A DNA stretch of 64,000 nt, taken from positions 1 to 64,000 of the forward strand of contig NZ_BBQH01000028.1 in the NCBI RefSeq assembly GCF_018397995.1, written 5' to 3'. This DNA is from Rhizomonospora bruguierae. Lineage in GTDB: Bacteria > Actinomycetota > Actinomycetes > Mycobacteriales > Micromonosporaceae. This document shows positions 7,560 to 24,505 of this stretch, piece by piece. Each line of letters opens with the position of its first letter. The first letter of the stretch is position 1. The notes beneath the pieces are model-generated. The model was not told the origin of the DNA. It searched no databases and was given only the letters and a program-made list of their open reading frames with translations. The position numbers and the translations under genes are program-made.

Positions 7560-7578
7560 GGGGCTCTCGCTTCTGCGT

Positions 7579-8307
7579 TCAGGAGGAACAGGTGACGCGG
7601 GCCTGCGCGACGGCCAGGCGGCTGGTGGGGGTGGTCGGCACACCCTGGTCGCCCAACGCCAGCGCGAGCCCGTTCCTGGTGGTGGGGAACGTGCCGATCG
7701 CCACCCACTGACCGGGCGCGGCTGCCTGGTCGACCACCTGCTCGGCTAGCGTGCCGCCGCTGCGGCCGGCGCGCACGACGTAGGTCGCCTGCCCCGCCGC
7801 GTCCTGGGGCCGTTCGGGCACCGGCACATAGACCGCCAGCTCGCAACGGGTGTACTCCGGTCCAGGAAGGAACCACCACATCGCCGCCTGGCGCGCCGTG
7901 CCCCGGTCGGGGTCACCGCTCATCGGGATCGTCTGGAAGGTGCCGTGGCACCCGTCGCGGTTCCAGGCCCCGGTGGCCATCGTGGTCCATTCCGGCGTAC
8001 GGCCAGTCACGTCGAAGCCGTGGTCGGCGGTGCTCTCGCAGTCCCACCCGGCCACCGCCGTGTACGCCTCGGCCGGCGGCGTCGTCGTCGCCGTCGCCTC
8101 CGACGGCGGGAACGCGAGCTGCAGCACGACGCCGACCAGCAGCGCGAGAACGCTGGCGATCGAGCCCACGACGGCGACCGTCGCCGGCCGCGCCAGGGGT
8201 CGCTCCGCGCCGGGTTGTGCCCAGACATGTTCGTCGAACGCCCGGACGAACTCCTGGCGGTCGCGCCAGGACAGGCGGCGCGGGCCCGGATCGGACACCG
8301 TCATCAC
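7579..8307 (-). CDS. Single-pass membrane protein of T7SS locus, unknown function
   Basis: A 242-residue protein: a cytosolic N-terminus of about 42 residues starting with a GPRRLSWRDRQEF segment, one membrane helix (about 43-66) and an exported domain of about 170 residues with four Cys that could form disulfides (WDCES, DGCHG, TRCEL, VTCSS). The start is GTG, overlapping the stop of the upstream mycosin-like gene as GTGA, with a following ATG as alternative. Tight coupling between the mycosin-like gene and eccC implies a role in the secretion complex. It does not match EccB or EccE by any motif I can see. The exported Trp-rich fold could bind a ligand, but nothing proves this. Confidence 0.6.
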   Translation of the reverse strand: MMTVSDPGPRRLSWRDRQEFVRAFDEHVWAQPGAERPLARPATVAVVGSIASVLALLVGVVLQLAFPPSEATATTTPPAEAYTAVAGWDCESTADHGFDVTGRTPEWTTMATGAWNRDGCHGTFQTIPMSGDPDRGTARQAAMWWFLPGPEYTRCELAVYVPVPERPQDAAGQATYVVRAGRSGGTLAEQVVDQAAAPGQWVAIGTFPTTRNGLALALGDQGVPTTPTSRLAVAQARVTCSS

Positions 8308-10013
8308 CGACCGCGGTCATGGTCGTCGCCGGCCGCACCGTAGCTGCTGGCCACCCCAAGCTCGCCGGAGGCGGCGGGACGTACGCCCCGGGGAATGGGC
8401 ACGGTCGGTGTCTCGGCGACCCGCCGCGGCGCGGGCGAAGCCTCGTCGTCGGGCGCCCCGGGTTCGGGCGCGTCGGGCGCGCCGTATCGGACGACCCGGC
8501 GGATACGCCAGAACAGGAAGACGCCCACGATCAACGCCAGCACGACCGTGACCAGGATCGCGGTGCGGGACGGGGGCGATGACGTGTCCGGCGTGGACCG
8601 GGCGCCCGCCGCCGACCCGGTCGGCTCGGCCGGCCCCGCCTGCCCGGCCAGCGCCACCGCCTGGGCGGGGTCGATGAGGCCGAACCCGTACTGCGGATCG
8701 GGCGCCTCGCCGGAGGCCATGGGACTCGCGGAGCGCAGGATGTCGTTGACGATCTGCGCCGCGGGCGCGTCCTTGTCGGCGCCGCGCAGGAGCGCCGCCT
8801 CCCCTGCGACGAACGCGACCGCGTACTGCACGCCCGAGCCGGAAAACGTTCCGGTGCCCAGGATCCCGACGCTGGACACGCCCACTCCGGGGGCGACCAC
8901 GTCCACGTCGCCCGCCGCGTACGTCGCGGCCAGTTCGCCGTCCACGCCCATCCCGCCGACCTGGATCACTTCCGCCGGCCAGGTCCCGGCCTCGCCGGTC
9001 GACGCGCCCATCACCACCACGACGTCGTGGCTGGCCGCTTTGCGGATCGCCGCGCCGACGGGCTCCTGGGCGGGGTCGACGTAGGAGCCCAGGGCGATGA
9101 TCCGGGCGCCGGCGGAGACCGCCACCTCGATCGCGGCCGCCTGGTCGGCCACCGTCGCCTTCGGCTCGTTGGTCGCGATGCGTACGGGCAGGATGGTCGC
9201 CTCGGGCGCCATCCCGACGATCGGGCTGCCGCCGCCCTCGTCGGCCGCGATGATGCCCGCCATCGCGGTGCCGGTGCCGAGGCAGTCGACGTCCCCACGG
9301 CCGGAGCCGGTGACGATGTCGGGGCCGGAGGCGACCCGTTTCTGCAGGGCAGGCACGCTGCCGTCGACGCCGGAGTCGATCACCGCCACGAGGACGCCAC
9401 CGCCCCGCCCCCGATCCCACGCCTGTTGCGGGGCGAGCCGCAGATGCGCCCAGTCCGAGGCGCTGCCGGGCACGGGCACGCCGGCGCACGAACCGGGCTT
9501 GGCGCTCGGCGCCGCCGAGGCGCTGGCTGTCGGCGTCGCCGACGCGCCGGCCGTCGGCCCGGCCGTCCCGAGCGGGTCCGCGGGCATCTTGGTGGGTGCG
9601 CCCGCCCCCCGCTCATCCCGACTCTCCGGCTTGGTCGGCTTGGCGGGTGCCGCCTTCTTGGTGGACTTCGTCGGCAGGACCCCGTACTGGACGCCGTCCC
9701 CGACCGCGTCCCACGGCAGCACCAGGAACCACCCGACGCGCAGCGTCGCCGGGTCGGTGAGCGAACCACCGTCGGGTTGGGTCCGCCCGACGTTGAGATC
9801 GAAGATGTCGGCGGACCGGCCCGCGCTGCCGAGGAACCGCACCGCGATGTCGGTCAGGCTCTCCGGCTTGCCGGATGCGGTCGCGCCGACCTCGTAGTAC
9901 TTGACGTTGACCGGGGTGGGCGCGGCCGCGCGGGCCGCCGGGGCCAGACCGGCGGCAAGGACCACCGCGCCGAGCAGGGCGGCCACCTTACGTACCCAGC
10001 CGGTGGCTGGCAT
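8304..10013 (-). CDS. Mycosin-like subtilase with degenerate active site
   Basis: A 569-residue exported protein: signal peptide (1-31), a LysM-like module (about 35-113), a Pro/Ala/Thr linker, a subtilase (S8) fold (about 185-445), a C-terminal membrane helix (about 483-502) and a cytosolic tail. This is MycP-like topology. The Asp motif VAVIDSGV is intact (Asp213), but the His motif reads DCLGTGTAMAG (Thr247 where mycosins have His), the Ser motif aligns as GVQYAVAFVAG (Gln396), and the oxyanion Asn of the GN motif is absent. It is therefore probably a pseudoprotease. MycP proteins also stabilise the ESX complex independently of protease activity, which could be the retained role. GGAG lies six bases before the ATG. 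Confidence 0.82.
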   Translation of the reverse strand: MPATGWVRKVAALLGAVVLAAGLAPAARAAAPTPVNVKYYEVGATASGKPESLTDIAVRFLGSAGRSADIFDLNVGRTQPDGGSLTDPATLRVGWFLVLPWDAVGDGVQYGVLPTKSTKKAAPAKPTKPESRDERGAGAPTKMPADPLGTAGPTAGASATPTASASAAPSAKPGSCAGVPVPGSASDWAHLRLAPQQAWDRGRGGGVLVAVIDSGVDGSVPALQKRVASGPDIVTGSGRGDVDCLGTGTAMAGIIAADEGGGSPIVGMAPEATILPVRIATNEPKATVADQAAAIEVAVSAGARIIALGSYVDPAQEPVGAAIRKAASHDVVVVMGASTGEAGTWPAEVIQVGGMGVDGELAATYAAGDVDVVAPGVGVSSVGILGTGTFSGSGVQYAVAFVAGEAALLRGADKDAPAAQIVNDILRSASPMASGEAPDPQYGFGLIDPAQAVALAGQAGPAEPTGSAAGARSTPDTSSPPSRTAILVTVVLALIVGVFLFWRIRRVVRYGAPDAPEPGAPDDEASPAPRRVAETPTVPIPRGVRPAASGELGVASSYGAAGDDHDRGR

Positions 10014-10158
10014 GTGCTCTCCTCAGGTCGGGGACATCGGGCTCCGCCGGTAGACGTTCGGGTCCCCGTTCGCGGTTCACGGAACGCTGAACTTCGGGTC
10101 GCGTTTGTCCGTCTACCGGTGACCAAGTGACAACGCGAGTCCGTCAGGGAGGACGACC
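10014..10158. promoter_or_regulatory. Divergent promoter region, mycosin-like / LuxR genes
   Basis: A 145-bp gap between two divergent transcription units of the T7SS locus, so it must contain both promoters. A strong ribosome site (AGGGAGG, 10146-10152) precedes the plus-strand GTG at 10159, and GAGGAG precedes the minus-strand ATG. No operator was identified. The adjacent LuxR-type regulator is the obvious candidate to bind here. Confidence 0.5.
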
Positions 10159-10851
10159 GTGGCACCACATACCGCGATCCGCTACCACGCTGACCTCGCT
10201 CCGCCGCCCGGGTCCGACGGGTTGATCAGCGTCGCGATCGTCGACGACCAGCCGGTGACGCGGGCGGGCATGGAGCAGGCCCTCGCCGGAGACCCCGACC
10301 TCACCGTGGTGGCCTCCGTGGACTCGGTCGGGGACCTGCCCGCGGGCAGCCGTGCCGACGTCGCGATCATCGCGCTCCCCCTGGTCGGTGACGGGCCGGC
10401 GGCCGTGGCATCGGCGGCCGCCATCGCCCATCCGCTGGTCACATCGATCTGGGACGGGCCGGCGACGCTGCTGCACGCGATCCGCGCGGGCGCCCGGGGG
10501 TGCATCACCCGGCACTCCGATCCCGAGACCGTGCGCACCGCGGTAGGCGTCATCGCCCGCGGCGGCTTCTATCTGTGCAGCCGGCTGGTGGGCCAGTTCC
10601 AGGCCGGCCTGGTCCGCGCCTCCCGGGAGGACGGGCACGTCCTCGCCCCCCGCGAGGTGGAGACCATCCGGCTGATCGCGCTCGGCTTCACCCAGGCGCA
10701 GATCGCCACCCGGATGGGCCTGACGCAGGCGACCGTCAACACGTACACCAAGCGCATCCGCAGCAAGCTGAACGTCAACAACAAGGCCGAGCTGACCAGG
10801 ATGGCGATCGAACTGGGCTACCTCGACGACCGTCGCCACGTGGCCGCCTGA
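10159..10851 (+). CDS. LuxR/NarL-type regulator with atypical receiver
   Basis: A 230-residue two-domain regulator. The N-terminal receiver-like domain (about 22-140) keeps the acidic pair in IVDDQPVT, but the phospho-acceptor position reads [10 protein letters not shown], with Ala72 for Asp, and the conserved Lys is Arg. The C-terminal LuxR HTH is intact ([31 protein letters not shown]). It probably binds DNA without phosphorylation, as described for other atypical receivers. The GTG start has AGGGAGG at a good distance. It sits divergent from the T7SS core and directly before the EccA-like gene, so it likely controls this locus (inference). Confidence 0.85.
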
Positions 10852-10859
10852 GGTCCGGC

Positions 10860-13511
10860 GTGGGGACACGGCCACAGGAGCGGGTAACCCCGCGGGGGTG
10901 GGGAAGCCACCGCACCATCAGCGCGGCCGTCAGGGCAGCGGATGACGGGGCGCTCATCCTCGTCTCGCCCGGTGTCTACCGGGAGAGCGTCCTGCTCGAC
11001 CGGCCGGTGGCGATCGTCGCCCAGTCCGCCGGCGGACCGGTCGAGATCGTCGCGGCGCACGGCCCGGCGATCGTCGCCACGGCGGGCACGGTCTCGGTGA
11101 CCGGCGCGACGATCCGCGGCTGCGGCCCGGACGGCGTCGCGGTCGCCATCTCCGCCGGGGACCTCACCCTCACCGACTGCGAGGTGTCGTCCGGGCGGGT
11201 CGAGGTGACCGGCTGGGCCACGCCCACCCTGAACAAGTGCCGCGTCCACGGCTGTAGCGGCGCCGGGATCCACGTGACCGGCGACGCCCGGGTCACGGTG
11301 TCCGGCTGCACCGTCGAGGACGTCGCGGGGGCCGGCGTCCTGCTCGACCGGTCCGCCTCGGCCACCGTGTCGGGCACGACGATCACCCGGGTGTCCACGC
11401 ACGGCGTGTCCGCGGCCGGCGCCGCGTCGGCCGCGCTCGACGACTGCGAGATCACCCACACCGGCGACGCCGGCGTGGCGGTGGACACCACGGGCCGCCT
11501 CACGGTGTCCTCCTGCCGCATGTCCGACCTGGGCAGCGACGGCATCTACGTGTCCGCGCCGGCCGGCCCGACCGACGCGGCGGAGATCATGGACTCCAGC
11601 ATCGCCCGCGCCGGCGGTCGCGGGCTGGCCGCGACCGGGTACGGGAAGGTGGCGCTGCGTCGCTGCCGGTTCACCGACGCCGGCAAGGGGGGTGTCGAGT
11701 ACTCCGACCACACGCGGGGTGAGATGGCCGACTGCGAGGTGACGGGCAGTGCCAGCACCGGGGTGGTCGTGCGTGGCTCGGCCCGGTTGACCGGCGCCGA
11801 CTGCGTGGTCACCCGACCCCAAGCGAACGGTCTCTTCCTCGGCGACGAGGCCGCGGTGACACTCGATCGCTGGCGGGTCGCCGACTCCTCCTTCACCGCG
11901 TTCCACCTCGCCGACCACGCCGACGTCGACCTGCGGGACTGCGTGGTGTCCGGATCCCGGGAGCACGGCGTGCGGGCCACCGGCCGGGCGATGCTGCGGA
12001 TGGCCGGTGGCACCGTCGAGAACGCCCAGATGACCGGCGTGCAACTGGAGGAGACCAGCGACGCCAACCTACGCGAGGTGTCCATCAAGCACACCACCGT
12101 CGGCATCCGGGCACAGACACCGCACCGGCCCCTGGTCGAGAGCTGCACCGTCTCCGCGTCCTCGACCTGCGGCCTGGAGATCGGTCCCGAGACCGGCCTG
12201 ACCGCGCTCAACTCCCGGTTCGTCGGCAACGGCACGGCCGGCGTGTTCATCGACCGGGACAGCGCGGCCCACCTCGAGGGATGCGAGGTCGAGGGCAGCG
12301 AGGGCAGCGGGGTGGTGGTGTGGAACGCCGCCCGGCCGTCGATCCGTTCGGTCACGATCAGCCGGTGTCGCAAGAACGGTGTCTACCTCGCCCCCGAGAC
12401 CAGGGCGACGCTCGACGACGTGACGCTGTCCCACACGGAATTCCCGGCCCTGTTCGTCGGTGACGGCGCCGAACCGGTGATCCGTCGCATGTGGATTCGC
12501 GATGCCGAGGTCGACGCCCGGATCGCCGAGACCGCGCGGCCGGTCTTCGAACAGTGCCGGGTGGACGACGCGATCGAGCGGAGCATTCCGGTCGAGGACC
12601 CGGCACCGGCCCGCCGCACGGTCTCCGGCGCACCGGTCGGGGCAGGACAGCGACCGGGTCACGCCGGCGACGCGACCGGCGCGCCGGACGACCCCACCGA
12701 ACGCCTGCCCGACCTGCTCCGCCAGCTTGACGAGCTGATCGGCCTCGATCGCGTCAAACAGGACGTCGGGACGCTGGTCACGCTGATGCAGATGGTCAAA
12801 CGCCGACAGGAGGCGGGGCTGCCGCCGCCCCCGCTGTCGCGCCACCTGGTCTTCGCCGGCAATCCGGGCACCGGCAAGACCACCGTCGCCCGGCTTTACG
12901 GCCAGATCCTCGCCGCCCTGGGCATGCTCAGCAAGGGTCACCTCGTGGAAGTCGACCGGGGCACCCTCGTCGGCGAGTACGTCGGGCACACCGCGCCCAA
13001 GACGCAGGCCGCGTTCCGGCGGGCCGCGGGTGGGGTGCTGTTCGTCGACGAGGCGTACGCCCTGGTCCCGGACGGCCAGGGCAGCGACTTCGGCCAGGAG
13101 GCGATCGCCACGCTGGTGAAGCTGATGGAGGACCACCGCGACGAGGTGGTGGTCATCGTCGCCGGCTACCCCGACGAGATGGAGCGTTTCATGGCCGCCA
13201 ACCCGGGTCTGGCCTCGCGCTTCACACGCACGCTCAGGTTCGATGACTACGAGCCCAAGGAACTCGTGCGCATCGTGGAGCACCACGCGGGCGCGCACCA
13301 GTACGGCTTGCACGCCGACACCGGTGCCGCGCTGCTGGAGCTGTTCGCCGCGACCCGCCGCACGGACAGCTTCGGCAATGGCCGGTTCGCCCGCCAGGTA
13401 TTCCAGGAGATGACGGAGCGACACGCGCGACGCGTCGCCGAGGTCAGCGACCCGACCGCCGAGGAGCTGACCATGCTGTTCCCGGCCGATCTGCCCGCGA
13501 CAGCGGGGTGA
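10860..13511 (+). CDS. Parallel beta-helix / AAA+ ATPase fusion (EccA-like)
   Basis: An 883-residue fusion. Residues about 15-570 are a right-handed parallel beta-helix of repeated about 23-residue rungs (patterns such as SGxGVxV and DCxVxxxxxxGV). Residues about 610-880 are a CbxX/CfqX AAA+ domain with Walker [10 protein letters not shown] (about 665), Walker [10 protein letters not shown] (about 727) and a sensor/arginine region [10 protein letters not shown]...ASRF. The AAA+ part matches the C-terminal domain of EccA, the cytosolic ESX ATPase; EccA normally has TPR-like repeats at its N-terminus, here replaced by a beta-helix. GTG 10860 has GAGG six bases upstream; the longer open frame overlaps the LuxR gene and is rejected. 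Confidence 0.85.
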
Positions 13512-13546
13512 CATCCGGACAGCGACTCGAGAACAAGGAGAACGAA

Positions 13547-14101
13547 GTGACCGAGCAGACCGATGACACGACGCCGCAGACCGATGACACGCCGCCCCCG
13601 CCCCCGCCGCCGGAGCCCGACGACCTACCCAAGATCACGATCCGGCCGGGATGGCCGCGCGATCTCATCGGCCAACTCATCAAGGACGGAGGATCGGAAG
13701 AACCGCCAGCCCCGCCGCAGACACCGTCACGTCCACCATACAAGGTCTATCTCGCCAACCTCCGCGATGCCGAGGCCCAAATCCTCGAGGCCGTCAAATG
13801 GGCGAAACAGGAGTACGACGACCTGGCCGGCCAGTTCGCCAAGGACCAAAAATGGATCTTCACCTTGGACGAAGAGAGGGAACTCTACGAGTATCACGGG
13901 GTTTGGGAGGGTAAGCACCCGAGCATCGTGCTGGGGGACACCTATCCGGAGCGCACAAAGGATTTTTCGGACCGGGGCAACTCGCTGCTGATGTCGGCGG
14001 CAGATGTGATCAGAGCCGCCGGCGACTTTACCCTGGCCCTCGATACGGCCGGCCAGATCTATTCCAAGGCCGACATCGACGCGACCTTTCCTTCCGAATG
14101 A
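13547..14101 (+). CDS. Acidic proline-rich protein, possible T7SS substrate
   Basis: A 184-residue hypothetical protein. Residues 1-30 are a Thr/Asp/Pro-rich tail with a run of prolines; residues about 68-184 are helical, with Trp-rich segments (AVKWAKQEYDDL, GVWEGKHPS). No signal peptide and no membrane helix. GTG 13547 was chosen because AAGGAG lies six bases upstream; an earlier GTG at 13508 overlaps the AAA+ gene stop but has no ribosome site. It directly follows the EccA-like gene and ends in a strong hairpin. EccA-type ATPases act with secreted substrates, so this could be a client, but the sequence alone does not show this. Confidence 0.6.
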   Translation: MTEQTDDTTPQTDDTPPPPPPPEPDDLPKITIRPGWPRDLIGQLIKDGGSEEPPAPPQTPSRPPYKVYLANLRDAEAQILEAVKWAKQEYDDLAGQFAKDQKWIFTLDEERELYEYHGVWEGKHPSIVLGDTYPERTKDFSDRGNSLLMSAADVIRAAGDFTLALDTAGQIYSKADIDATFPSE

Positions 14102-14108
14102 GGCACGC

Positions 14109-14143: not shown

Positions 14144-14159
14144 ACGCTCGCCCGGCGCG

Positions 14160-14558: not shown

Positions 14559-14588
14559 GCTTGACTCCTGATCTCACTACCAGATGCG

Positions 14589-15873: not shown

Positions 15874-15879
15874 GGGTCG

Positions 15880-17265
15880 TCACGACTGGATGGCGGACCA
15901 GGACAGCACCGACTCCTTCCCCTCCGCGGGGGCGACCCGGCCGGTGCTGCCGGTGAAGCCGATCCACGCCTTGTCGGTGCCCAACTGCGCCCGTAGGTCG
16001 ATCGAGTAGGTGAACAGCGGAGCGGCTGGCTGCTCGCTTGACTGTCCGGCCCGGACGGTCAACGTTCCGGCGCTCGCGCTGTAGTGGACCCAGACGTAGA
16101 ACGGTTGGTTGTCCGTCACGCTGAACCCGGGCGGGGCCGAGATGTGGTGCCGGGTGATGTCGCCGTTGGTGGTGACCGCGATGTGCGGGTTCTGGCCCTC
16201 CGGGTCCCATCCGGCGTTGGCCCAGGTGTCGATCTCCACGGCGACACTTGGCCGGATCATCCACTCCGGCTCGACGTCGGGGCGCCCGCCGTACCCGATG
16301 CCGCCGCCGGTACCGCCGAGAGCGTCCTCCCCCGCGGCCTGGATGACGAAGGCGAGGCCGTCGGTGTGCGCCTTGATGGCAACCTTGAACCACGACGCGA
16401 ACGACCGGTTGGTATCCACCCGCTCCGTCGCCCAGAGGCTGCCCTTCTGCTCCAGGCCCTCGGCCAGATCCACCCGGCCGTCGACGGCCTTCGCCGAACC
16501 GTTCAGGCGCAGGTTCGTCGTCTTGCTGAAGTCGGGAAAACTCACCGAGAACGACGGCGCCTGCGGTTCCGGCGCCGTGGCGGACACCGTCGGGGAGCCG
16601 GTCGGCGAGGCCGCCCGGGTAGGTGCCGCCGTGGTCGGTGTCGTCGTCACGGTCGGGCTGGTCGTCGGCTCGGGGGTCCCGGTGTCTTCGGCCATCACCC
16701 CCACCCGCAGCGCCTGCTCGTACGCCGAGGCGTACGTCTCCACCTCGTTCACGAAGGTGGTCGCCCGCGCGGGCACTCCGGCGGCCTGGTGCACGTCCTG
16801 CAGCGACGAGGCGAAGGCACCCACGGCCAGCCGCCACACGTCACCCGGCACGCCGCTCGTGCGCAGGTTCCCGATCAGGTCGCAGGTCAGATGCGCGAGC
16901 GCCAGCACACTGGCCGACTCGTCGTCGGGCCGCGCGGCCTGCCAGGGCTTCCAGACCTCCCACTCGTTGGCCGACAGCCCGGCGATGCCGCCTTCCGGCG
17001 TGCCCTTGAAGCCCGTGGCGGCCATGACCTGACCGGCCAGCCGGGCCGGGGTGACGGCGGGGCAGGACGCCGAGGCTTCGGTGAGGGCGGCCAGGCGCGC
17101 GTCGTCCAGCGGAACGATGCCCTCGGGCTGCGCGTTGGCGGTGGTCACCACGGTCGCCACGCCGGCCAGGACGAGGACGCCGACGGTGGCGACCACCACG
17201 CGTCGCCGCTCGGGCCGCCAAAGCGATCGGGTCCACCGGCTGCCTGCGCGAAACTTCGTACCCAT
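15880..17265 (-). CDS. Membrane-anchored degenerate transglycosylase / L-type lectin
   Basis: A 461-residue exported protein: basic N-terminus, signal-anchor helix (about 22-42), an SLT-like region (about 68-150), a Thr/Pro linker (about 180-225) and a C-terminal L-type (legume-like) lectin domain (about 230-460). Lectin signatures are the SFASWFKV strand, DGLAFVIQA, GIGYGG, VAVEIDTW and NPHIAVTTNGD, which is the metal and sugar site pattern. In the SLT-like part, the position of the catalytic Glu (Q-x-x-x-E-S/T-G-F) reads QVMAATGF, so Glu is Ala83 and lytic activity is doubtful. It is divergent from the LysM-like gene. Likely role: binding cell-wall glycan near the secretion apparatus (inference). 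Confidence 0.72.
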   Translation of the reverse strand: MGTKFRAGSRWTRSLWRPERRRVVVATVGVLVLAGVATVVTTANAQPEGIVPLDDARLAALTEASASCPAVTPARLAGQVMAATGFKGTPEGGIAGLSANEWEVWKPWQAARPDDESASVLALAHLTCDLIGNLRTSGVPGDVWRLAVGAFASSLQDVHQAAGVPARATTFVNEVETYASAYEQALRVGVMAEDTGTPEPTTSPTVTTTPTTAAPTRAASPTGSPTVSATAPEPQAPSFSVSFPDFSKTTNLRLNGSAKAVDGRVDLAEGLEQKGSLWATERVDTNRSFASWFKVAIKAHTDGLAFVIQAAGEDALGGTGGGIGYGGRPDVEPEWMIRPSVAVEIDTWANAGWDPEGQNPHIAVTTNGDITRHHISAPPGFSVTDNQPFYVWVHYSASAGTLTVRAGQSSEQPAAPLFTYSIDLRAQLGTDKAWIGFTGSTGRVAPAEGKESVLSWSAIQS

Positions 17266-17374: not shown

Positions 17375-18997
17375 ATGCCGGGCGTGGGGACTTCCTCCAA
17401 GCCTCGACGCCCACCGCCGGCCGGCCGGGCGGGTCGGCGCGCCGTGCGGTGGCTCGTGTGCGCCGCGCTGCTGGGCGCCGTGGGCGCGGCCGGCCTGACC
17501 GGAACCGCCGCCGCCGAACCGGCGCCGTCGGTGTCGGCCACGACGCCGGCCACCGTGAAGTACTACGTCGTCGGGCGGACCGGCGGGGCCGAGCGGGAGT
17601 ACCTGTTCCAGATCGCCGCCCGGACCCTGGGTGACGGGCACCGGCAAAAGGAGATCTTCGAGCTGAACCGGGGGCGGTTGCAGCCGGACGGGCAGCGGAT
17701 GGACGACCCGCTGGTGGTGCTGCCCGGCTGGGTCCTGCTTCTCCCGGCGGACGCGAAAGGGCCCGGCGTGCTGTCCGGCCCGGCACCGACGGTCAGCGAC
17801 CCGCGCACGCCCCCGCCCGCATCCGCGGCCCCCGACGCACGGTCCGACGATTGGCTGCTGCGGGCGGGGGCTATCGTCCTGGTCACGACCATCCTCGGCG
17901 TCTCGCTGCACCTCCTGCGCCGCGGGCAGCGCATCGAGCTTCACCGCCCGGTCCGGGCCACGGGCCGGGCCCGGCTCGACCAGCCTGCTCCGGCGGGCCG
18001 TCGCCCGCGCGATCTCCCGACCGACGACGGCTGGCCCGCGCTCGAGTCGCCTCCCCCACTGCGCCGCCCGCCCGATCTCCCCACCGACGACCGCTGGCCC
18101 ACGGTCGAGTCGCCTCCCCCACTGCGCCGCCCGCCCGATCTCCCCACCCGCGGCCGGGGCAGGGAATCCGTGCCCACCACGGCGAACGGGTGGGCCGAAC
18201 CCAACGACCGGGGCGCGGAATCCGTGCCCAGCACGGCACACGGCCGGGAACCCGAGCTGCGCGGCGCGGAATTCGCGCCCACCACGGCGAACGGCCGGGA
18301 ACCCGAGCTGTGCGGCGCGGAATTCGCGCCCACCACGGCACACGGCCCGACCGAACCCGACGACCGGGGCACGGAGTCGTCCGGCACGGAGTCGTCCGGC
18401 GCGGTGTCGGCCGACCAGGCACCGCGCTGGGCTTCGGCGCGGTTGCTGGAGGCCCCGGCGCCGGCCAGGCCGGCCGACACCGCGCCACCGCGGGTGGAAC
18501 TTCGCCTGCGGTCCGGCTCCGACCAGGTGGCGATCCGCCTCGTCGGCGCTCGTCCCGACGCGGGCGACGCGTTCTTCGGGCGTGGTGAGATCGGGTCGCG
18601 AACCGGTGCGGCGGTGGTGCACCTGGGCGACCCGGGGCCGGGCGCCGCTTGGCTGGATCTCAGCGCAAGCCCCGACGTCGTCACGGTCAGCGGCGACCCG
18701 GCCGGCGTCCGCCGCCTGACACTGACGCTCACCCGCCAGCTGTCCCGCGCTGGCGTGCCGACGATCGCCGTCGGCGACGCGCTCGGGGAAACCGGCGGGA
18801 CAGACCACTGGATCGGGTCCCTCGACGAACTGGCCGACCGGTTCGGCGACACGCCGCTACTGGTGGCCTTCGTCGGTGACCTCCCGGCGGGGGATGTCGC
18901 CACGCTGCACGAACTGCTGGTGCGCTGGCAGCCCCGGGTGGTGCCGATCGTGGTCGGATCGGGACCGCGGTCCCGTTGGTCGATCGACGTGGCCTGA
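17375..18997 (+). CDS. LysM-like membrane protein with tandem repeats
   Basis: A 540-residue protein: signal sequence (about 24-48), a LysM-like module (about 58-130; VKYYVVG, then EIFELNRGRLQPDGQRM, then PGWVLLLP) closely related to the N-termini of the two mycosin-like proteins, a membrane helix (about 163-183), a long Pro-rich cytosolic repeat region (about 210-335) and a globular C-terminal domain (about 365-540). Two repeat sets are visible: 63-bp units from 18011 and about 51-bp units from 18164. No ribosome site is evident at ATG 17375, and a downstream GTG is possible. It overlaps or abuts the next gene, so the two are likely co-expressed. I do not recognise the C-terminal domain. Confidence 0.65.
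   Translation: MPGVGTSSKPRRPPPAGRAGRRAVRWLVCAALLGAVGAAGLTGTAAAEPAPSVSATTPATVKYYVVGRTGGAEREYLFQIAARTLGDGHRQKEIFELNRGRLQPDGQRMDDPLVVLPGWVLLLPADAKGPGVLSGPAPTVSDPRTPPPASAAPDARSDDWLLRAGAIVLVTTILGVSLHLLRRGQRIELHRPVRATGRARLDQPAPAGRRPRDLPTDDGWPALESPPPLRRPPDLPTDDRWPTVESPPPLRRPPDLPTRGRGRESVPTTANGWAEPNDRGAESVPSTAHGREPELRGAEFAPTTANGREPELCGAEFAPTTAHGPTEPDDRGTESSGTESSGAVSADQAPRWASARLLEAPAPARPADTAPPRVELRLRSGSDQVAIRLVGARPDAGDAFFGRGEIGSRTGAAVVHLGDPGPGAAWLDLSASPDVVTVSGDPAGVRRLTLTLTRQLSRAGVPTIAVGDALGETGGTDHWIGSLDELADRFGDTPLLVAFVGDLPAGDVATLHELLVRWQPRVVPIVVGSGPRSRWSIDVA
18011..18350. repeat. Coding tandem repeats, 63-bp and 51-bp sets
   Basis: A 63-bp unit starts at 18011, 18074 and 18137 (the last is partial) and encodes DLPTDD-x-WP...ESPPPLRRPP. 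It is followed by four units of about 51 bp (from about 18164) encoding variations of GAEFAPTTANGREPEL. All are in frame and form the linker of the LysM-like membrane protein. Confidence 0.8.
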
Positions 18998-18999
18998 CC

Positions 19000-20307
19000 G
19001 TGTCCGCCGTCCTGCCTCCGGCGACGCGATCCGCGCCCGGCGACGACCACCCGCCACCCCGGACACCCGGCCTGCACGACCTGGCGCTCGTGGTCGGACC
19101 CGACGGCGGGCTCGCCCGGCCGGACAGGGTCGACGTCGCCTTGCGCGCGGCGGACCTGACGGCGCTGGTGCGGCAGGCCGGGGCCGAGGACTGCGACCTG
19201 CGGATCCTGACCGCGCCGGGTGAGCGGAACGTGCCGCTGCTGCGCGGCCTCGCCCGTCGCCTCGGGCGCGACGTGCTCGTCCCGCCGGCCGGGGCGCAGG
19301 TCGTCCGCAGGCCGCTGGCGCGCACGACGGGCGTCGAGGACGATCTCGTCGCCGTCGACGCGGACGGCTACCCGGTCGACTGGCTGATCGTGCAGCCCGG
19401 TGGGCAGGTCGGGTCGGCCTTCGGCTGGTTCGAGCTGTCCGGCGGCCGGGTCCGGCAGCGGACCGGCCCGATCTCGCTGCCCCTGCCGGACGGCGGTGTG
19501 ATGCTGGCGACCCGCGAGACGTTCGTCCACACCCGTACGGCGGCCGCGGCCATCCGGGTCGGCCATCCGGCGTTCGTCACGCTCGGCGTGCAGGTGCGCT
19601 CGGGCGACTTCGTGCTCGGGTACTACGATCGCAGCACGACGCGGGTGGACGCCGCCGGGCTGGCCGCTGCCCTCGCCGCGCTTCCGCTCTACCGGCGTCA
19701 GGTACGGCTCTGGCTGCGCTGGCCGGACGACGAGGCCGACCGGGGCCGGTTGCGGACCAACCTGGCGGACTTCGCCGAGGTGACCGGGGCGACCGTGTGG
19801 GTGCCGGCCGAGCCGGCCGAGGCGGTCCTGCTCGGCGGCTGCCTCGACCTGGCGGCCGTCGACCCGCAGGGCGCGGCGGGCCACTGGCAGGCATACGGTC
19901 CGACGGGCCCGTTCGAGTCCGACGTGGACGGCCGCCTGGTGCCGACCGGCGGGGTGCGCGTGGCGCACCTGCCCGCGGTCGACCTCGTGAGCGGCCTCCC
20001 GGCGCGGGAACGGGAGCTGGCCGAGCGCCGGGGCGCCGCGAAGGAGCCGGCGGCGGCGCCGTTCACCTGCGACCTGGCGGTGCTGGTGGACGGCCGCCTG
20101 GCGGTCCGGTACGGCGACGGCAGCCTGCTGGCCGTGGGCGGCCGGCAGTTCACTCACCTGCTCCGTGACGCGGGCTGGACCGGGTCGAAGGTGGCGCTGC
20201 TCTCGTCGGTCACGCCCGAGCAGGCCGCGGGCGTGCGCCTGCATCTGGCCGACCTGGTCAGCCACCTCGGCACGGCGATCCGACTCCATGAGGGACGGAC
20301 GGCATGA
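19000..20307 (+). CDS. T7SS-associated accessory protein, paralogue of the 31.6-kb gene
   Basis: A soluble protein of about 435 residues with no signal peptide. It starts with LHDLALVVGPDGGLARPD and contains LPLYRRQVRLWLRWPDD, GHWQAYGPTGPFESDVDGRL and LAVRYGDGSLLAVGGRQF. The whole length aligns with the N-terminal half of the large protein at 31646. I do not recognise the family. GTG 19000 lies two bases after the upstream stop; TTG 18976 would give eight more residues and overlap the LysM-like gene. Neither has a good ribosome site. Tight linkage with the LysM-like gene suggests one transcription unit. Confidence 0.65.
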   Translation: MSAVLPPATRSAPGDDHPPPRTPGLHDLALVVGPDGGLARPDRVDVALRAADLTALVRQAGAEDCDLRILTAPGERNVPLLRGLARRLGRDVLVPPAGAQVVRRPLARTTGVEDDLVAVDADGYPVDWLIVQPGGQVGSAFGWFELSGGRVRQRTGPISLPLPDGGVMLATRETFVHTRTAAAAIRVGHPAFVTLGVQVRSGDFVLGYYDRSTTRVDAAGLAAALAALPLYRRQVRLWLRWPDDEADRGRLRTNLADFAEVTGATVWVPAEPAEAVLLGGCLDLAAVDPQGAAGHWQAYGPTGPFESDVDGRLVPTGGVRVAHLPAVDLVSGLPARERELAERRGAAKEPAAAPFTCDLAVLVDGRLAVRYGDGSLLAVGGRQFTHLLRDAGWTGSKVALLSSVTPEQAAGVRLHLADLVSHLGTAIRLHEGRTA

Positions 20308-20421
20308 ACCCGCGGCGTCTTCGCGAGCGGTCCTCGACCCTCCCTTCTCCATGCGGGTTCTGCCGAGAGGCGGGCCGAGGCGACCGGCCGGCTCACCCGC
20401 TCGCCCGGTTCGCCCGTACGC

Positions 20422-21180
20422 TCAGCCGGTCAGCCGGATGAGCGCGCGCTTGACCATCCCGCTGTCGCGGTCATCGATCCAGCGCTGGACCTCGAACGGC
20501 CGGCCCGACCGGCTCAGCGCCTGGGCGTGGCCGGCCGCGCTGGCGGCGGCGGCCACGTTGGTCAGCAGCAACATGCCCGCGATCGACTGCCACCGGCCGC
20601 GCCGGGCCGACTGGTCCACGTCGAGGTCCGTCAGGGGATCCAGCCGGTAGCGGACGGCTACCTGGATGCTCTTTCCGAGCACCTCGGCCAGCAGGTCGCC
20701 GGTCCACTGGTCGAGCCAGGAGACCGCGCTCGCGGTGCGCACCATCAGGTTCGCCGCGTCCCGTTGGTAGAGCGCCGACGCGAACTCGACCGGCTGGTCG
20801 GGGGTGAGCAGCTCCCGCAGTCGCGACTGCACCGCGTCGGGAAGGCTGGAGACGATCTCCGCCACCGCCCGGGGGGCGAGTTCGCGCAGCAGCTCACGGG
20901 TGATCGCCGGGTCGAGCCGCGGGAGCAGGTCGGCGAACTGGCCTATCGTCAGCTGCTGTAACAGTGTCACCCGGACCTCGGCGGGTAGGCCGAGCAGCAG
21001 CTTGCCCGCCCGGTCAGCGGGAGCTCCGAGAATGATCCGGATCAGGTCGGCCGGCGGCAGCTCGGTGACGATCACCGCCATCCGGTCCACGGTGACGCTC
21101 TGGAGGAGTCTCGCCGCCTCGGCCGGCTTGACGGATCTCAGCATCGCGATCAGATGAGGCGTAGGCATCCGGTCTATCAA
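20422..21180 (-). CDS. Helical-repeat protein with MgtE_N-like repeats
   Basis: A 252-residue protein. Residues about 5-130 are short alpha-helical repeats of the type LLxxVxPAEAARLLxxV / LPPADLIRIILGAP / LPAEVRVTLLQQL, resembling the N-terminal superhelix of MgtE and FliG-like repeats. The C-terminal half (about 135-252) has Trp motifs (SWLDQWTGDLLAEVLG) and an Ala-rich helix and is unrecognised. No membrane helix is clear, so it is not a magnesium transporter. It stands alone, convergent with the accessory gene and divergent from the sigma-factor region. Confidence 0.6.
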   Translation of the reverse strand: MIDRMPTPHLIAMLRSVKPAEAARLLQSVTVDRMAVIVTELPPADLIRIILGAPADRAGKLLLGLPAEVRVTLLQQLTIGQFADLLPRLDPAITRELLRELAPRAVAEIVSSLPDAVQSRLRELLTPDQPVEFASALYQRDAANLMVRTASAVSWLDQWTGDLLAEVLGKSIQVAVRYRLDPLTDLDVDQSARRGRWQSIAGMLLLTNVAAAASAAGHAQALSRSGRPFEVQRWIDDRDSGMVKRALIRLTG

Positions 21181-21669
21181 TGTTCTGTCCTAACTGAACT
21201 GTTGATATTCGTCACGTTGACGGTCGGCGGTGACGTCCCGTTCAAGGGACGTCCGATACGTCCGCACGACTTGAAACTTCCGACAAATAGGCTAAACGGC
21301 CCAGGATTTTACAATTTGGTAACGACCGATTTTTGTTTGCTTGGCATTCGGCCACTCGGCGCCGTAGTTTCCACGTAGACCTACATTCACGCTCCCTAAC
21401 AGACATCCGGAAGCCGACATCCCCCGCCTCCGGTCTCCGAGGAGGGCCCGCCGTGACGCACATCGTTCCCGCAGCGCCCCGGCCGCCGGTTCCGGCCATC
21501 AACGGTGCCGCGTCGGCCCTTCCTCACACGGACCAGGGTCCGTACTATGCGGATCACGCGACATCGTGGCGCTCGGCCGCCTGCCCGGCAGCGGAGCGCC
21601 ATGATGTCGAACAATAGGACCTTTTCGGTGAATATGGACCGGAGGCCCCACCGCGAGGACGATTTGGTG
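21181..21669. promoter_or_regulatory. 489-bp intergenic region upstream of the ECF sigma gene
   Basis: No convincing gene. The region has visibly lower GC than its surroundings, contains promoters for the divergent genes on both sides, and includes an 8-bp-arm inverted repeat (21232-21253). Small plus-strand frames here run into the sigma-factor frame but have no ribosome site. Confidence 0.45.
21232..21253. promoter_or_regulatory. Inverted repeat GACGTCCC-N6-GGGACGTC
   Basis: Perfect 8-bp arms (21232-21239 and 21246-21253) separated by six bases, about 50 bp upstream of the minus-strand ATG at 21180. It could be an operator for a dimeric regulator, or a hairpin in the leader of either divergent transcript. 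Confidence 0.5.
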
Positions 21670-22233
21670 ATGTCTGGCCGTCAGAGTACGCACAAGCCGA
21701 CGTCGGGCACCGAGTCGACGACCGAGGCCGCCCTACGCGATCTCCGGGACGCGCACGGCGCGGTGCTGCTCAGCTTCCTGCTGCGCCTCACCCGGAACGA
21801 CCGGGACCGCGCCGAGGACATCCTCCAGGAGACGATGATCCGAGCGTGGCGGCATCCGGAAGCCCGCGGAGCGGATGGCGCGTGGAGCCGTCCGTGGCTG
21901 TTCACCGTGGCTCGACGGATCTTCATCGACCAGCAGCGGGCCGCCACCAGCCGGGTCACGGAGCTCAGCGATGTCCGACTGGACAGCCGCCCGGACGAGA
22001 CCGACCTGCTGGAGCAATCCATCAACGTCGCGGAGGTACGGTCCGCGCTGGAGTCGCTGCCCGACCGGTTGCGTGACGTGCTCGTCGAGGTCTACCTGCG
22101 GGACCGATCGGTGGGCGAGGCGGCCGAGACGCTGGACATCCCGGCGGGCACCGTCAAGTCGCGGACCTTTTACGCGATGCGCGCGCTGCGGGAAGCCCTG
22201 ATCCAGCGGGGGTTCGATCTGCCGGCTCGGTGA
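21670..22233 (+). CDS. ECF-type RNA polymerase sigma factor
   Basis: A 187-residue sigma-70 family protein with region 2 (LLRLTRNDRDRAEDILQETMIRAWRHPEA; W...RPWLFTVARRIFIDQQRA) and region 4 (LPDRLRDVLVEVYLRDRSVGEAAETLDIPAGTVKSRTFYAMRALRE, quoted in part). It fits the SigL/SigK-like ECF class, which usually works with zinc anti-sigma factors. ATG 21670 or GTG 21667 is preceded by GAGGA (21655-21659); the frame stays open to 21505, but the added residues are not family-like. The neighbouring convergent gene encodes a ZAS-type anti-sigma factor, unusually on the opposite strand. It likely directs a cell-envelope regulon (inference). Confidence 0.88.
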   Translation: MSGRQSTHKPTSGTESTTEAALRDLRDAHGAVLLSFLLRLTRNDRDRAEDILQETMIRAWRHPEARGADGAWSRPWLFTVARRIFIDQQRAATSRVTELSDVRLDSRPDETDLLEQSINVAEVRSALESLPDRLRDVLVEVYLRDRSVGEAAETLDIPAGTVKSRTFYAMRALREALIQRGFDLPAR

Positions 22234-22236
22234 CGG

Positions 22237-22941
22237 TCAATGCGGGACGACGACGCGGGCCAGCACGGAACCGCCCACCTTCGTCACCGTGAAGAACGCG
22301 ATGTCCCCCGGACGCTTACTGACGGTCGCCACCATCTCCTCCTCGGCGTGCGAGGCGATGATCTCATCGACGACGACGGTGGCGCCGTCCGTGGTCACCG
22401 CGATGAGCTGGATCTGCTGTCCAGGCGTCAGGCCGGCGGTGACGGCGCGCACGATGGAGCCGGACTCCCTCGGCTCAAGGGTGACCGAGAGCGTCACGCC
22501 GGTCACCTCGTCGGTGTCGCTGACCGAAACGCCGACCGGGCCACGCTCGCCGGACGTCAGCGCGGCTCCGATGCCGATGCCCCCCACGAGAACAAAGGCC
22601 GCCGCCACGGCCATCACCTTGGCCCGGGCGGTGAACCATCCGTTGCGCCGGATGGGGATGGGGGACACCGCGGGAGCCGGTGACGGTTCGGCGACGGGCA
22701 CCCGCAGCGCCCGCGGTGCGGTCTGCGGACGAAGCTGGTCGGCCAGCGCGCGGCGCTCGTCCTCGCGCAGCGAGGCCAGCACGTCGGTCAGGTCTCGGAG
22801 CTCCTGGTAGTCGGCCAGGCAGGCGGAGCACTGGTCGAGGTGGCGCCGCACGGCTCGCTGTTCGTCAAGGGGCAGCTTACCGAGCACGTACAGCCCCAGA
22901 TCGAACCGCACGTGCTCGTCGCCGTCGGTGGCAACGCTCAT
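22237..22941 (-). CDS. Zinc-finger anti-sigma factor
   Basis: A 234-residue membrane protein. The N-terminal ZAS domain has His34-x3-Cys38-x2-Cys41 (HLDQCSAC), one membrane helix lies at about 107-128, and an exported C-terminal domain of about 100 residues resembles the RskA/anti-sigma-K C-terminal domain (TPGQQIQLIAV, GDIAFFTVTK). It should hold the adjacent ECF sigma factor at the membrane until an envelope signal releases it. The two genes converge with only three bases between their stops, whereas most such pairs are co-transcribed. Confidence 0.85.
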   Translation of the reverse strand: MSVATDGDEHVRFDLGLYVLGKLPLDEQRAVRRHLDQCSACLADYQELRDLTDVLASLREDERRALADQLRPQTAPRALRVPVAEPSPAPAVSPIPIRRNGWFTARAKVMAVAAAFVLVGGIGIGAALTSGERGPVGVSVSDTDEVTGVTLSVTLEPRESGSIVRAVTAGLTPGQQIQLIAVTTDGATVVVDEIIASHAEEEMVATVSKRPGDIAFFTVTKVGGSVLARVVVPH

Positions 22942-23083
22942 GCCGCCATCCTCACCCTGTCCTCACCCTGCCCCGCTTCACCTCGGTTGGTCTCCGTTCA
23001 ACGTCAGCCCGGAGGCAACCGTTCACACGGCCGACGAATCCGTCCTATCGGGTTACCACGGTACCGCTATCCTCGGCACCAGA

Positions 23084-24505
23084 CTACGGCGTTGCCGCCC
23101 GGAACCGCCGGCGCCGGGCGCGCGCCAGCAGCCACCCCGCACCGCCGAGGCCGATCGCGGCACCGGCGACCAGCACGACCGGCAGCGCCCCACGCCGACG
23201 TTCGGGCAGTACCGTCGAGCCGCCGGAGGACGTGAGGGAAGCGGCTGGATTGATCACACCCCAGCCCCGGACACCGTCGGGGACCTCGGCTCTCGCGTCC
23301 GCGGTCCGCTCGATGTGCTGCGCCGCCTCCGCCGCGGTGAGTTCCGGCTGCGCCGACCGGACGAGGGCGACCAGGCCGGCGACGAAGGCGACGGACAGGT
23401 CGGGGGTGGTGGCCTCGATGTGGCCCCGGCCGTCGGCGTCCAAGGTGAGGATCCGTTGCCCGGGCGCGAGCACGTCGACCCCGCCCGGGGCGTACCGCTC
23501 GAACAGGCGGTCGTCGGCGGCGACGGCGCCCACCCGCAGCAGGCCGCGTCGGGGTGCGCCGGCACCCCGGCCGCCGGGTGGCGGGGCGGCGACGACGACC
23601 ACCACGTCGGCGTTCACCGCCTGGTCGATCGCCGCGCTCACCGCCGGATCGGACACGTCCACCACACCGGGCACCGCGACGACCGCGGCGCCGGACTCAG
23701 CCGCCACCGTCAGCGCGGCCACCAACTCGTTCCGGGTGATTCGATCGGTGCTGGCGACCGTCAGCGGCAGGATGGTCGTCGCTGGCGCCACCCCGATGAG
23801 CGGGCTGCTCGGGTGCGGTTGGGCGGCGATGATGCCGGCCAGGGCCGTGCCTCCCGGCGGGCAGTCCGCGCCGGGCCGGGCACGGCCGCCGCTGAGGTCC
23901 ACCGGCGCCAGCACCCGACCGGTCAGCTGCGGTGCGTCGGCTGCGACGCCCGTCGTCACCACGGCGACCGTGGCATTCTCGCCCCGGCTGTGACTCCAGG
24001 CCTGGTCGCTCGCGAGTCGCAGCTGTGCCCACGGTATCCCGGCCGACTCCGGGGGAATCGCCTTGCACGCCGCCTCCCGGCTCGCCACCAACGGCACTGA
24101 AACCGGCGGCGCGGAGCTGACGGGTCCTGCCGCCGGGGTGGTCGGCAGGATGCCGAGCACGACATCCCGGCCGACCGCGTCCCAGGGCACGACCAGGGCC
24201 CATCCCGTGTGCAGCTCGGCCGGATCGCTCAACCGGCCGCCGTCACGCTGTGGCCGCCCGGCGTTGAGGTCGAAGATGTCCGCACTGCGACTGCCGTCCC
24301 CGAGCAGCCGCTCGGCGATCGTGGGCAGGGTCTCCGGGCGGCCGCTCGCATCCGCCTTGACGACGTAGAACTTCACGCTCGGTGACTCGGCGCCGGGGCC
24401 ACCGAGGGCCGGTGCACCCCACCCGGTCAGGCTCGCCACGAGCATGAGACTCGACGCGATCACGAGTAGCACGGGGAGGCGTCCCCGACCGGCGCGTGCC
24501 TCCAC
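23084..24505 (-). CDS. Second mycosin-like pseudoprotease, all catalytic residues lost
   Basis: A 473-residue exported protein with the layout of the mycosin-like gene at 8304: signal helix (about 10-32), LysM-like module (about 43-120; SVKFYVVKADASG, ADIFDLNAGRPQRDGG, GWALVVPWDAV), a subtilase fold (about 155-410) and a C-terminal membrane helix (about 440-462). The Asp motif is VAVVTTGV (Thr184), the His motif DCPPGGTALAG (Gly218), the Ser motif TPDLSVAFVAG (Asp369), and no GN oxyanion motif remains. It cannot be a serine protease. GTG 24505 was chosen for GGAGGG six bases upstream; an earlier ATG at 24535 is the alternative. Confidence 0.8.
   Translation of the reverse strand: MEARAGRGRLPVLLVIASSLMLVASLTGWGAPALGGPGAESPSVKFYVVKADASGRPETLPTIAERLLGDGSRSADIFDLNAGRPQRDGGRLSDPAELHTGWALVVPWDAVGRDVVLGILPTTPAAGPVSSAPPVSVPLVASREAACKAIPPESAGIPWAQLRLASDQAWSHSRGENATVAVVTTGVAADAPQLTGRVLAPVDLSGGRARPGADCPPGGTALAGIIAAQPHPSSPLIGVAPATTILPLTVASTDRITRNELVAALTVAAESGAAVVAVPGVVDVSDPAVSAAIDQAVNADVVVVVAAPPPGGRGAGAPRRGLLRVGAVAADDRLFERYAPGGVDVLAPGQRILTLDADGRGHIEATTPDLSVAFVAGLVALVRSAQPELTAAEAAQHIERTADARAEVPDGVRGWGVINPAASLTSSGGSTVLPERRRGALPVVLVAGAAIGLGGAGWLLARARRRRFRAATP

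What the first reader, a model, noticed from the sequence alone, without database searches (positions are those of the whole stretch)
8304..24505. Two mycosin-like proteins that have lost protease catalytic residues
Both genes keep the subtilase fold, signal peptide and membrane anchor of MycP, but the first reads Asp213/Thr247/Gln396 and the second Thr184/Gly218/Asp369 at the catalytic positions, and the oxyanion Asn is missing in both. Loss in two copies points to a selected non-enzymatic, structural role (pseudo-mycosins), consistent with the known complex-stabilising role of MycP. The Gln396 placement depends on a gapless alignment.
Basis: partly seen in the sequence, partly recalled or inferred. 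Interest (0 to 1): 0.8.

Follow-up and report, generated by a model that had tools for sequence, protein, structure and literature searches.

The report
Protease-dead mycosins with cell-wall-binding domain
This soil actinobacterium carries two members of an apparently undescribed family of 'dead' secretion-system proteases that lost their cutting residues but carry what looks like a cell-wall-binding domain, which suggests that some type VII secretion machines keep their mycosin as a building part rather than as an enzyme.

Summary
Confirmed, and larger than reported. Both proteins are mycosin-type subtilases without a usable triad: PM1 (8304-10013) reads Asp213/Thr247/Gln396, PM2 (23084-24535) Thr/Gly/Asp; neither has the oxyanion Asn. 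In 44 of 44 LysM members examined Ser and Asn are gone; Asp is kept in 43, His in 6. Eighteen of the 44 were not in the discovery alignment. A tree puts 52 pseudo-mycosins on one side of a branch against 22 intact ones (97/94). Five pseudo pairs show dN/dS 0.31-0.40. Of 14 EccC-bearing loci with a pseudo-mycosin, 11 show no intact mycosin in the stretch read; in five of them a pseudo-mycosin lies beside EccC, where relatives have an intact one. PM1 sits in an EccC/EccD/WXG100 locus without EccB, repeated in a one-contig relative. Best reading: non-enzymatic structural subunits of T7SS-like machines, tethered to peptidoglycan. Loss of the triad is near certain; the structural role is inferred. 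But 24 of 35 LysM pseudo-mycosin stretches show no EccC. No paper found in the library searched describes the family.

The parts
8304..10013 (-). PM1: LysM-fold + pseudo-subtilase (D213/T247/T339/Q396) + C-terminal TM helix by hydropathy; subfamily A pseudo-mycosin
9666..9902 (-). LysM-fold domain of PM1
   Evidence: AF2 model pLDDT 93.6; Z 8.7, 1.1 A over 53 residues to the best row
23084..24535 (-). PM2: LysM-fold + pseudo-subtilase (T194/G228/Pro/D379) + C-terminal TM helix by hydropathy; subfamily B pseudo-mycosin. The finding starts it at 24505.
24164..24373 (-). LysM-fold domain of PM2
   Evidence: 63% identity to PM1's
7579..8307 (-). Protein with one TM helix (by eye) and a Golvesin_C-like domain, between EccC and PM1; relatives in L167, L039, L181
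   Evidence: 26.8 bits, under Pfam's 31.6
3519..7643 (-). EccC-like FtsK/SpoIIIE ATPase, 1374 aa, three FtsK stretches
2717..3259 (-). WXG100-like protein (ORF start uncertain)
   Evidence: 33.4 bits, over cut-off
2409..2849 (-). WXG100-like protein (ORF start uncertain)
   Evidence: 26.4 bits, just under the 27.3 cut-off
1938..2381 (-). WXG100-like protein
   Evidence: 18.6 bits, under cut-off
561..1937 (-). EccD-like: YukD domain + EccD TM domain
10159..10851 (+). LuxR-type regulator; relatives beside PM1-type loci in L167 and on the contig of L039
10794..13511 (+). beta-helix + AAA ATPase with AAA_lid_6 (start uncertain); found in PM1-type loci
15880..17265 (-). Lytic-transglycosylase-like domain (Ala where some relatives have Glu) + legume-type lectin; frequent neighbour of LysM pseudo-mycosins
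   Evidence: (lectin only; no SLT match for this protein itself)
17375..18997 (+). LysM-fold domain + TM helix (by eye) + conserved C-terminal region; frequent neighbour
18976..20307 (+). Conserved protein without Pfam match, frequent neighbour
21505..22233 (+). Sigma-70 family sigma factor (ECF-like); a sigma gene is a frequent neighbour
22237..22941 (-). zf-HC2 (anti-sigma-like) protein

Best explanation
PM1 and PM2 are members of a conserved family of pseudo-mycosins: exported, membrane-anchored subtilase folds without a protease triad and with an N-terminal LysM-fold domain. They most likely work as structural subunits. The subtilase fold docks onto the outer side of a T7SS-like membrane complex, as MycP does in ESX-5, and the LysM domain, on a flexible linker, ties that assembly to peptidoglycan. 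SHOWN: triad and oxyanion loss across the members read, one clade, purifying selection in the pairs tested, LysM fold in a model, co-localisation of PM1 with EccC/EccD/WXG100. INFERRED: absence of any protease activity, export, docking, peptidoglycan binding, structural function. PM2 (subfamily B) is proposed to pair with an A-type partner, since all seven B members read lie near an A member.
For: 44 of 44 LysM members lack Ser and oxyanion Asn: 26 (for L044 the Ser column comes from the frame after an N gap, Glu) and 18 not in the alignment. Of the other 112 rows of the first set 106 have Ser (Fisher p 1e-22, rows not independent). No Ser, His, Lys or Glu is kept in 16 or more of 18 members in the S8 domain, so no replacement catalytic set is apparent. 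Both Cys of the extension/His-motif pair are kept in 26 of 26 and 16 of 18. One branch separates 52 pseudo from 22 intact mycosins, 97/94. dN/dS 0.31-0.40 in five pseudo pairs, 0.46 in one intact pair. The PM1 model superposes on subtilases (Z about 36). Gene maps: 11 of 14 EccC loci with a pseudo-mycosin show no intact mycosin in the stretch read. The gene beside EccC is an intact mycosin in L048, L176, L185, L188 and a pseudo-mycosin in L042, L171, L194, L169, L052. G001 (one contig) repeats the window's order EccD-WXG-EccC-Golv-PM1 / LuxR-betahelix/AAA. Published: protease-independent MycP role.
Against: PM1's locus has no EccB, the MycP partner in ESX-5; in G001 the EccB hits are at 0.47 and 6.39 Mb against 3.71 Mb. 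24 of 35 stretches with a LysM pseudo-mycosin show no EccC. In L054 and L162/163 the pseudo-mycosin is near but not beside EccC. In 3 of 14 EccC loci an intact mycosin is present as well. The Trp523 of the MycP5-EccB5 interface has no counterpart in pseudo or intact mycosins of this set, so that interface could not be tested. Intact mycosins exist elsewhere in the genome (6 in G000) and could act in trans. Pfam's LysM model reaches only 11 of 35 domains at E <= 1, best 0.019, and not PM1's own. G001's EccC reads in two frames, so that copy may be broken or carry a sequence error. No binding or secretion data.
Confidence: 0.55

Rival explanations
1. Pseudo-mycosins have left secretion and are peptidoglycan-bound sensors or scaffolds of a sigma-factor-controlled cell-envelope module, working with the neighbouring lytic-transglycosylase-like/lectin protein and the stand-alone LysM protein.
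For: In stretches without EccC, LysM pseudo-mycosins lie with various of the lectin/transglycosylase-like, LysM-TM, 18976-type, sigma and anti-sigma genes (L038, L041, L044, L062, L168, L174, L175, L180, L184, L190, L193). 24 of 35 stretches show no EccC. The transglycosylase-like neighbour lacks its Glu in the window too.
Against: 11 of 35 stretches do hold EccC (7 of 20 in the first survey, 4 of 15 in the second); a pseudo-mycosin lies beside EccC in five loci; LysM-less pseudo-mycosins sit in EccB/C/D loci (L052, L054, L162/163).
Confidence: 0.25
2. They act as decoys or regulators of intact mycosins: a heteromeric pseudo/active cap, or a substrate-binding trap, that tunes proteolysis.
For: In L176/L037, L185 and L188 an intact mycosin and an A-type pseudo-mycosin lie within about 5 kb, with similar neighbours. 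G000 has six intact mycosins.
Against: 11 of 14 EccC loci with a pseudo-mycosin have no intact one in the stretch read. The oxyanion segment and the GTS segment are changed too.
Confidence: 0.12
3. They are enzymes with a new catalytic centre (conserved Asp with Thr/Ser and Gln/Glu/Arg).
For: Asp kept in 43 of 44, and in 37 of 37 subfamily-A members the His position is Thr or Ser.
Against: The Ser position ranges over Q, E, R, A, H, P, V in A and D, G in B; no Ser, His, Lys or Glu is kept in 16 or more of 18 members in the S8 domain; the Asp may be kept for folding.
Confidence: 0.03
4. Assembly error or decaying pseudogenes.
For: The genome is a 182-contig draft.
Against: Open frames, GC3 0.87-0.92, the same kind of substitutions in other genomes, several on one contig, dN/dS at most 0.40 in five relatives' pairs.
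Confidence: 0.01

Closest known systems
MycP mycosins of T7SS (MycP1/3/5; NCBIfam TIGR03921)
   Same: Subtilase fold, Cys pair (extension and His motif; its disulfide is recalled), N-terminal hydrophobic stretch and C-terminal TM by hydropathy, PM1 beside EccC/EccD/WXG100
   Different: No triad, no oxyanion Asn, extra LysM-fold domain, no EccB near PM1, scores under the family cut-off
CspC-type pseudo-subtilase (NCBIfam NF040808; E 0.88, i.e. no real match; function from its label)
   Same: Subtilase fold with a lost triad kept for a non-proteolytic role
   Different: Other lineage and context; no LysM or TM anchor (recalled)
PCSK9 (PDB hits to PM2; action recalled)
   Same: Subtilase fold used as a binding module
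   Different: Keeps its triad for self-processing (recalled); animal protein; unrelated system
LysM domains of envelope proteins (NlpC/P60 4uz2/4uz3, MltD 8rhf, Kbp 7pvc)
   Same: beta-alpha-alpha-beta fold, 1.1-1.4 A over 45-53 residues
   Different: Divergent sequence that Pfam mostly misses; fused to a subtilase

Membership tests
T7SS mycosin (MycP) | Subtilase (S8) fold | tested here: met
   (PM1 model); PM2 by sequence only
T7SS mycosin (MycP) | Asp-His-Ser triad and oxyanion Asn | tested here: not met
T7SS mycosin (MycP) | Score over the NCBIfam TIGR03921 cut-off (278.75 bits) | tested here: not met
   180.3 and 148.5 bits; note that the intact L004-L006 of this genome also fall below
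T7SS mycosin (MycP) | N-terminal signal and C-terminal TM helix | tested here: inconclusive
   hydropathy only; no signal-peptide predictor was run
T7SS mycosin (MycP) | Encoded with EccC/EccD/WXG100 | tested here: met
   PM1 only. PM2 is about 13 kb from PM1 and not beside Ecc genes
T7SS mycosin (MycP) | EccB in the same locus | tested here: not met
   the contig breaks 560 bases beyond EccD in the window, but relatives L167 and L039 lack EccB nearby too. The EccB on the window's contig (88.4 kb) lies in another EccC/EccD set
T7SS mycosin (MycP) | Needed for stability and secretion of the membrane complex | not testable with these tools
   needs genetics and biochemistry
LysM domain | beta-alpha-alpha-beta LysM fold | tested here: met
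   (a predicted model; Foldseek E-values weak)
LysM domain | Match to the Pfam LysM model | tested here: inconclusive
   11 of 35 members at E <= 1, best 0.019; PM1's own none
LysM domain | Binds peptidoglycan or chitin | not testable with these tools
   no binding data

The most novel reading that the evidence does not exclude
PM1 marks an EccB-less branch of type VII secretion (EccC, EccD, WXG100, a TM-Golvesin_C protein, a beta-helix/AAA protein, a LysM pseudo-mycosin) in which the periplasmic cap made elsewhere by EccB and the MycP protease is rebuilt from a non-enzymatic subtilase anchored to peptidoglycan.
Probability: 0.3. Interest if true: 0.78.

Novelty: new variant of a known kind. 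Interest (0 to 1): 0.63.

Why it matters
Why T7SS machines need a protease whose activity is dispensable has been an open question. A clade in which the triad is lost, and in which seven EccB/C/D loci show only triad-less mycosins in the stretch read, is a natural experiment for the structural answer. It points to actinomycetes in which this can be tested, and adds a possible peptidoglycan link not reported in the papers seen here.

Tried and rejected
A replaced catalytic centre was considered and put low. A test through the MycP5 Trp523-EccB5 interface led nowhere, since no Trp stands there in intact mycosins of this set either. The whole-model fold searches listed only S8-type proteins among the 50 rows shown and said nothing on the LysM part, hence the second model. 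The first genome-contig scan with the N-domain alone matched 39 stretches but confirmed none. LysM-less pseudo-mycosins exist too (L052, L054, L077, L113, and C-type in L042, L045, L169, L171, L194), so the LysM domain is not required for loss of the triad. L080 (Asp to Glu, Streptomyces) lies outside the clade. L077/L162 keeps Asp, His and Asn and has Asp for Ser. Rows dropped before counts: ORFs under 180 bits; 7 duplicates, 145 to 138; L015 and L031 as repeats; L044 and L080 from the second tree, for which only 20 of the 105 intact rows of the first were taken, plus 2 new. L144 shows one more pseudo-mycosin (DTTQ) cut by the locus edge, not counted. The 18 'held-out' members were found with a profile of the first 18, so they are not a fully independent sample; one search scored only 29 candidates per genome and may miss some. 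Literature: mycosin+pseudoprotease 0 papers; mycosin+type VII secretion+catalytic triad+actinobacteria 1; mycosin+LysM 4, listing; type VII secretion+pseudoenzyme 4, listing, none on mycosins by title and abstract start; mycosin+Streptomyces+EccC+catalytic 0; mycosin+inactive+catalytic residues+homolog 2. Of these, PMC3482391 and PMC1779556 were read in passages and do not describe it. Only open-licence PMC was searched.
Full report
WHAT IS THERE. The window is the start of contig C28 (110,034 bases) of a 6.70 Mb, 182-contig genome whose genus has one species in the collection. Genome G006 of the same family has mycosin cores identical to those of Catenuloplanes japonicus loci, so the organism is a Micromonosporaceae (family of Catenuloplanes recalled); the species was not identified. 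PM1 and PM2 look like real genes, subtilases by Pfam and mycosin-like by NCBIfam, below the cut-off. The same genome holds six mycosins with intact Asp/His/Asn/Ser (L001-L006).

CATALYTIC SITE. PM1 keeps Asp213 and has Thr247 for His, Thr339 at the oxyanion Asn and Gln396 for Ser. PM2 has Thr, Gly, Pro and Asp.

A FAMILY. A search of 21 genomes (own plus 20 relatives) with PM1 gave 16 further proteins that share the N-terminal domain, 18 with PM1 and PM2. After removal of duplicates there were 138 mycosin-type ORFs: 26 with the N-terminal domain, 7 without it that lack a catalytic residue, 105 with Asp/His/Ser (L039 was moved to the LysM group after its sequence was read). In the 26: Ser 0, Asn 0, Asp 25, His 4. 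In L044 two N bases break the frame; the Arg first read at its Ser column is an artefact and the following frame reads Glu. A search of 61 genomes of the family then gave a clean split: 35 matches that begin in the N-domain score 400 bits or more, all others at most 299 bits except L025 (384 bits), whose long linker cut the match. These 36 genes are in 14 of the 61 genomes (G000, G001, G003, G006, G010, G012, G039, G043, G053, G055, G066, G067, G076, G079). Eighteen of them had not been in the alignment and served as a further test: Ser 0 of 18, Asn 0 of 18, Asp 18 of 18, His 2 of 18. Total 44 distinct LysM members read in all surveys: Ser 0, Asn 0, Asp 43, His 6. Because the 18 were found by a profile of triad-less sequences they are not a fully independent sample, but the LysM domain, not the site, defines them.

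SUBFAMILIES. A (PM1; 37 members): His to Thr or Ser in 37 of 37; Ser to Gln, Glu, Arg, Ala, His, Pro or Val. B (PM2, L029, L030, L032, L036 and one each in L182 and L184; 7 members): His kept except in PM2; Ser to Asp, in L032 to Gly. PM2 is the most degraded member, the only one of 44 without the Asp. All 7 B members lie near an A member: about 13 kb apart in the window, under 5 kb in the other six. C, without LysM, [DR.A], next to A in L042, L045, L169, L171 and L194.

EVOLUTION. In a 138-row tree the pseudo-mycosins, L080 apart, fall in one clade (SH-aLRT 88, not a starred branch), those with LysM at 99. In a careful 74-row tree 52 pseudo and 22 intact rows lie on two sides of one branch, 97/94, and the 43 LysM rows on one side of a branch at 100/100 (rooting is for drawing only). 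One loss followed by gain of the LysM domain is the simplest history. dN/dS by a simple counting method is 0.31, 0.32, 0.38, 0.32 and 0.40 in five pseudo pairs and 0.46 in one intact pair; GC-rich codon bias makes these rough.

STRUCTURE. The PM1 model (residues 28-463, 18 rows) has mean pLDDT 82 with a disordered linker and matches subtilases, MycP1 and MycP3. The N-domain alone (35 rows) models at pLDDT 93.6. Its best rows are LysM-containing structures: Z 8.7, 1.1 A, 53 residues (7vcm, a Kbp-based sensor; that it holds Kbp's LysM is recalled) and Z 6.5, 1.4 A, 47 residues for the NlpC/P60 LysM 4uz3. Foldseek E-values are weak (best 0.09). A profile search of PDB sequences gave one match at E <= 1, a LysM protein at 0.019. 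Among the 18 rows of A2 the S8 domain has no Ser, His, Lys or Glu kept in 16 or more.

NEIGHBOURHOOD. PM1 lies in EccD - three WXG100-like - EccC - Golvesin_C/TM - PM1, divergent from LuxR - beta-helix/AAA. G001, a one-contig genome, repeats this order with one WXG100-like gene detected; EccC is 55-62%, LuxR 51% and the Golvesin_C protein 46% identical. Its EccC reads in two frames, a break or a sequence error. Its EccB genes lie at 0.47 and 6.39 Mb, far from 3.71 Mb. L039 (Actinoplanes sp. NBRC 103695) has the same set in a somewhat different order, EccC 57% identical, and no EccB hit on that contig C35. L181 has A, Golvesin_C, beta-helix/AAA and EccC, but the stretch ends inside EccC, so EccB is untested there. 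In G000 an EccB (273 bits) lies at 88.4 kb of C28 in another EccC/EccD set; the mycosin profile finds only PM1 and PM2 on this contig. The Golvesin_C gene was found in window, L167, L039 and L181 and in none of the EccB-bearing loci mapped.

PSEUDO-MYCOSIN-ONLY T7SS LOCI. Of 14 loci with EccC and a pseudo-mycosin, 11 show no intact mycosin in the stretch read: window, L167, L039, L181, L169, L171, L042, L194, L052, L054, L162/163; 3 do: L037/L176, L185, L188 (my count from those maps). Seven of the 11 hold EccB (L169, L171, L042, L194, L052, L054, L163). The stretches are 19 to 52 kb (the window's contig 110 kb), so an intact gene further off is not excluded, and all five of these genomes that were searched hold an intact mycosin elsewhere (L129-L133). 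In Streptomyces sp. NBC_01306 the one EccB of the genome lies in such a locus, with an intact mycosin (L132) 4 Mb away. Position is telling: beside EccC sits an intact mycosin in L048, L176, L185 and L188, a C-type pseudo-mycosin in L042, L171 and L194, a B-type in L169 and another pseudo-mycosin in L052. In L054 and L162 the pseudo-mycosin is near but not beside EccC; in the window, L167, L039 and L181 other genes lie between. Against this, of 35 stretches with a LysM pseudo-mycosin (20 in the first survey, 15 in the second) only 11 show EccC (L045 is only 4 kb long).

HOW IT MAY WORK. ESX work gives MycP a structural role: protease-dead MycP1 and MycP5 support secretion (PMC5082899, passages), and a MycP5 trimer caps and stabilises the EccB5 assembly with its active sites facing the lumen (PMC8131196, abstract and passages). 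A clade that lost the triad yet kept fold, Cys pair and anchor is what that predicts. The LysM domain on a linker suggests a tie to peptidoglycan, and the neighbours fit: a stand-alone LysM/TM protein, and a lytic-transglycosylase-like protein with a lectin domain (Pfam SLT 25.3 bits in L046, over the cut-off; 20.6 in L062, under it; none in L038, nor in the window's own). The Glu of its ESGF-like motif is Ala in the window and present in the first such domain of 6 of the other 10 proteins read; the second such domain lacks it in all 9 read (motif assignment recalled). Because 24 of 35 stretches show no EccC, a role outside secretion is the main rival.

NOVELTY. I found no description of pseudo-mycosins or LysM-mycosins in the searches listed, which cover open-licence PMC only. 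It is a new variant of a known kind (a pseudoenzyme of a known secretion component), with a bolder possibility in the EccB-less branch.

Noticed in passing
window 15880-17265 (-): Lytic-transglycosylase-like domain fused to a legume-type lectin; the motif Glu found in 6 of 10 relatives reads Ala here, and the second such domain of 9 relatives lacks it in all: possibly a second pseudoenzyme in the same locus.
   Followed up: partly
window 17375-20307 (+): A stand-alone LysM/TM protein and an adjoining conserved protein without Pfam match lie near LysM pseudo-mycosins in many of the genomes mapped.
   Followed up: partly
L127 (G000 contig C28, 76-96 kb), beyond the window: A second T7SS gene set (EccB by profile; EccC, EccD and beta-helix protein by similarity; a WXG100-like gene by eye) with no mycosin on the contig beyond PM1 and PM2.
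   Followed up: partly
L126:2954-13357 (-): A 3467-aa open frame beside that second T7SS; its start resembles, by eye, large T7SS-exported proteins. Not searched.
   Followed up: no
window 7579-8307 (-): Golvesin_C/TM protein found in window, L167, L039 and L181 and in none of the EccB-bearing loci mapped: a candidate stand-in for EccB.
   Followed up: partly
L080:12954-14288 (+): A Streptomyces himalayensis mycosin with Glu for the catalytic Asp, near an intact paralogue: a separate change outside the clade.
   Followed up: no
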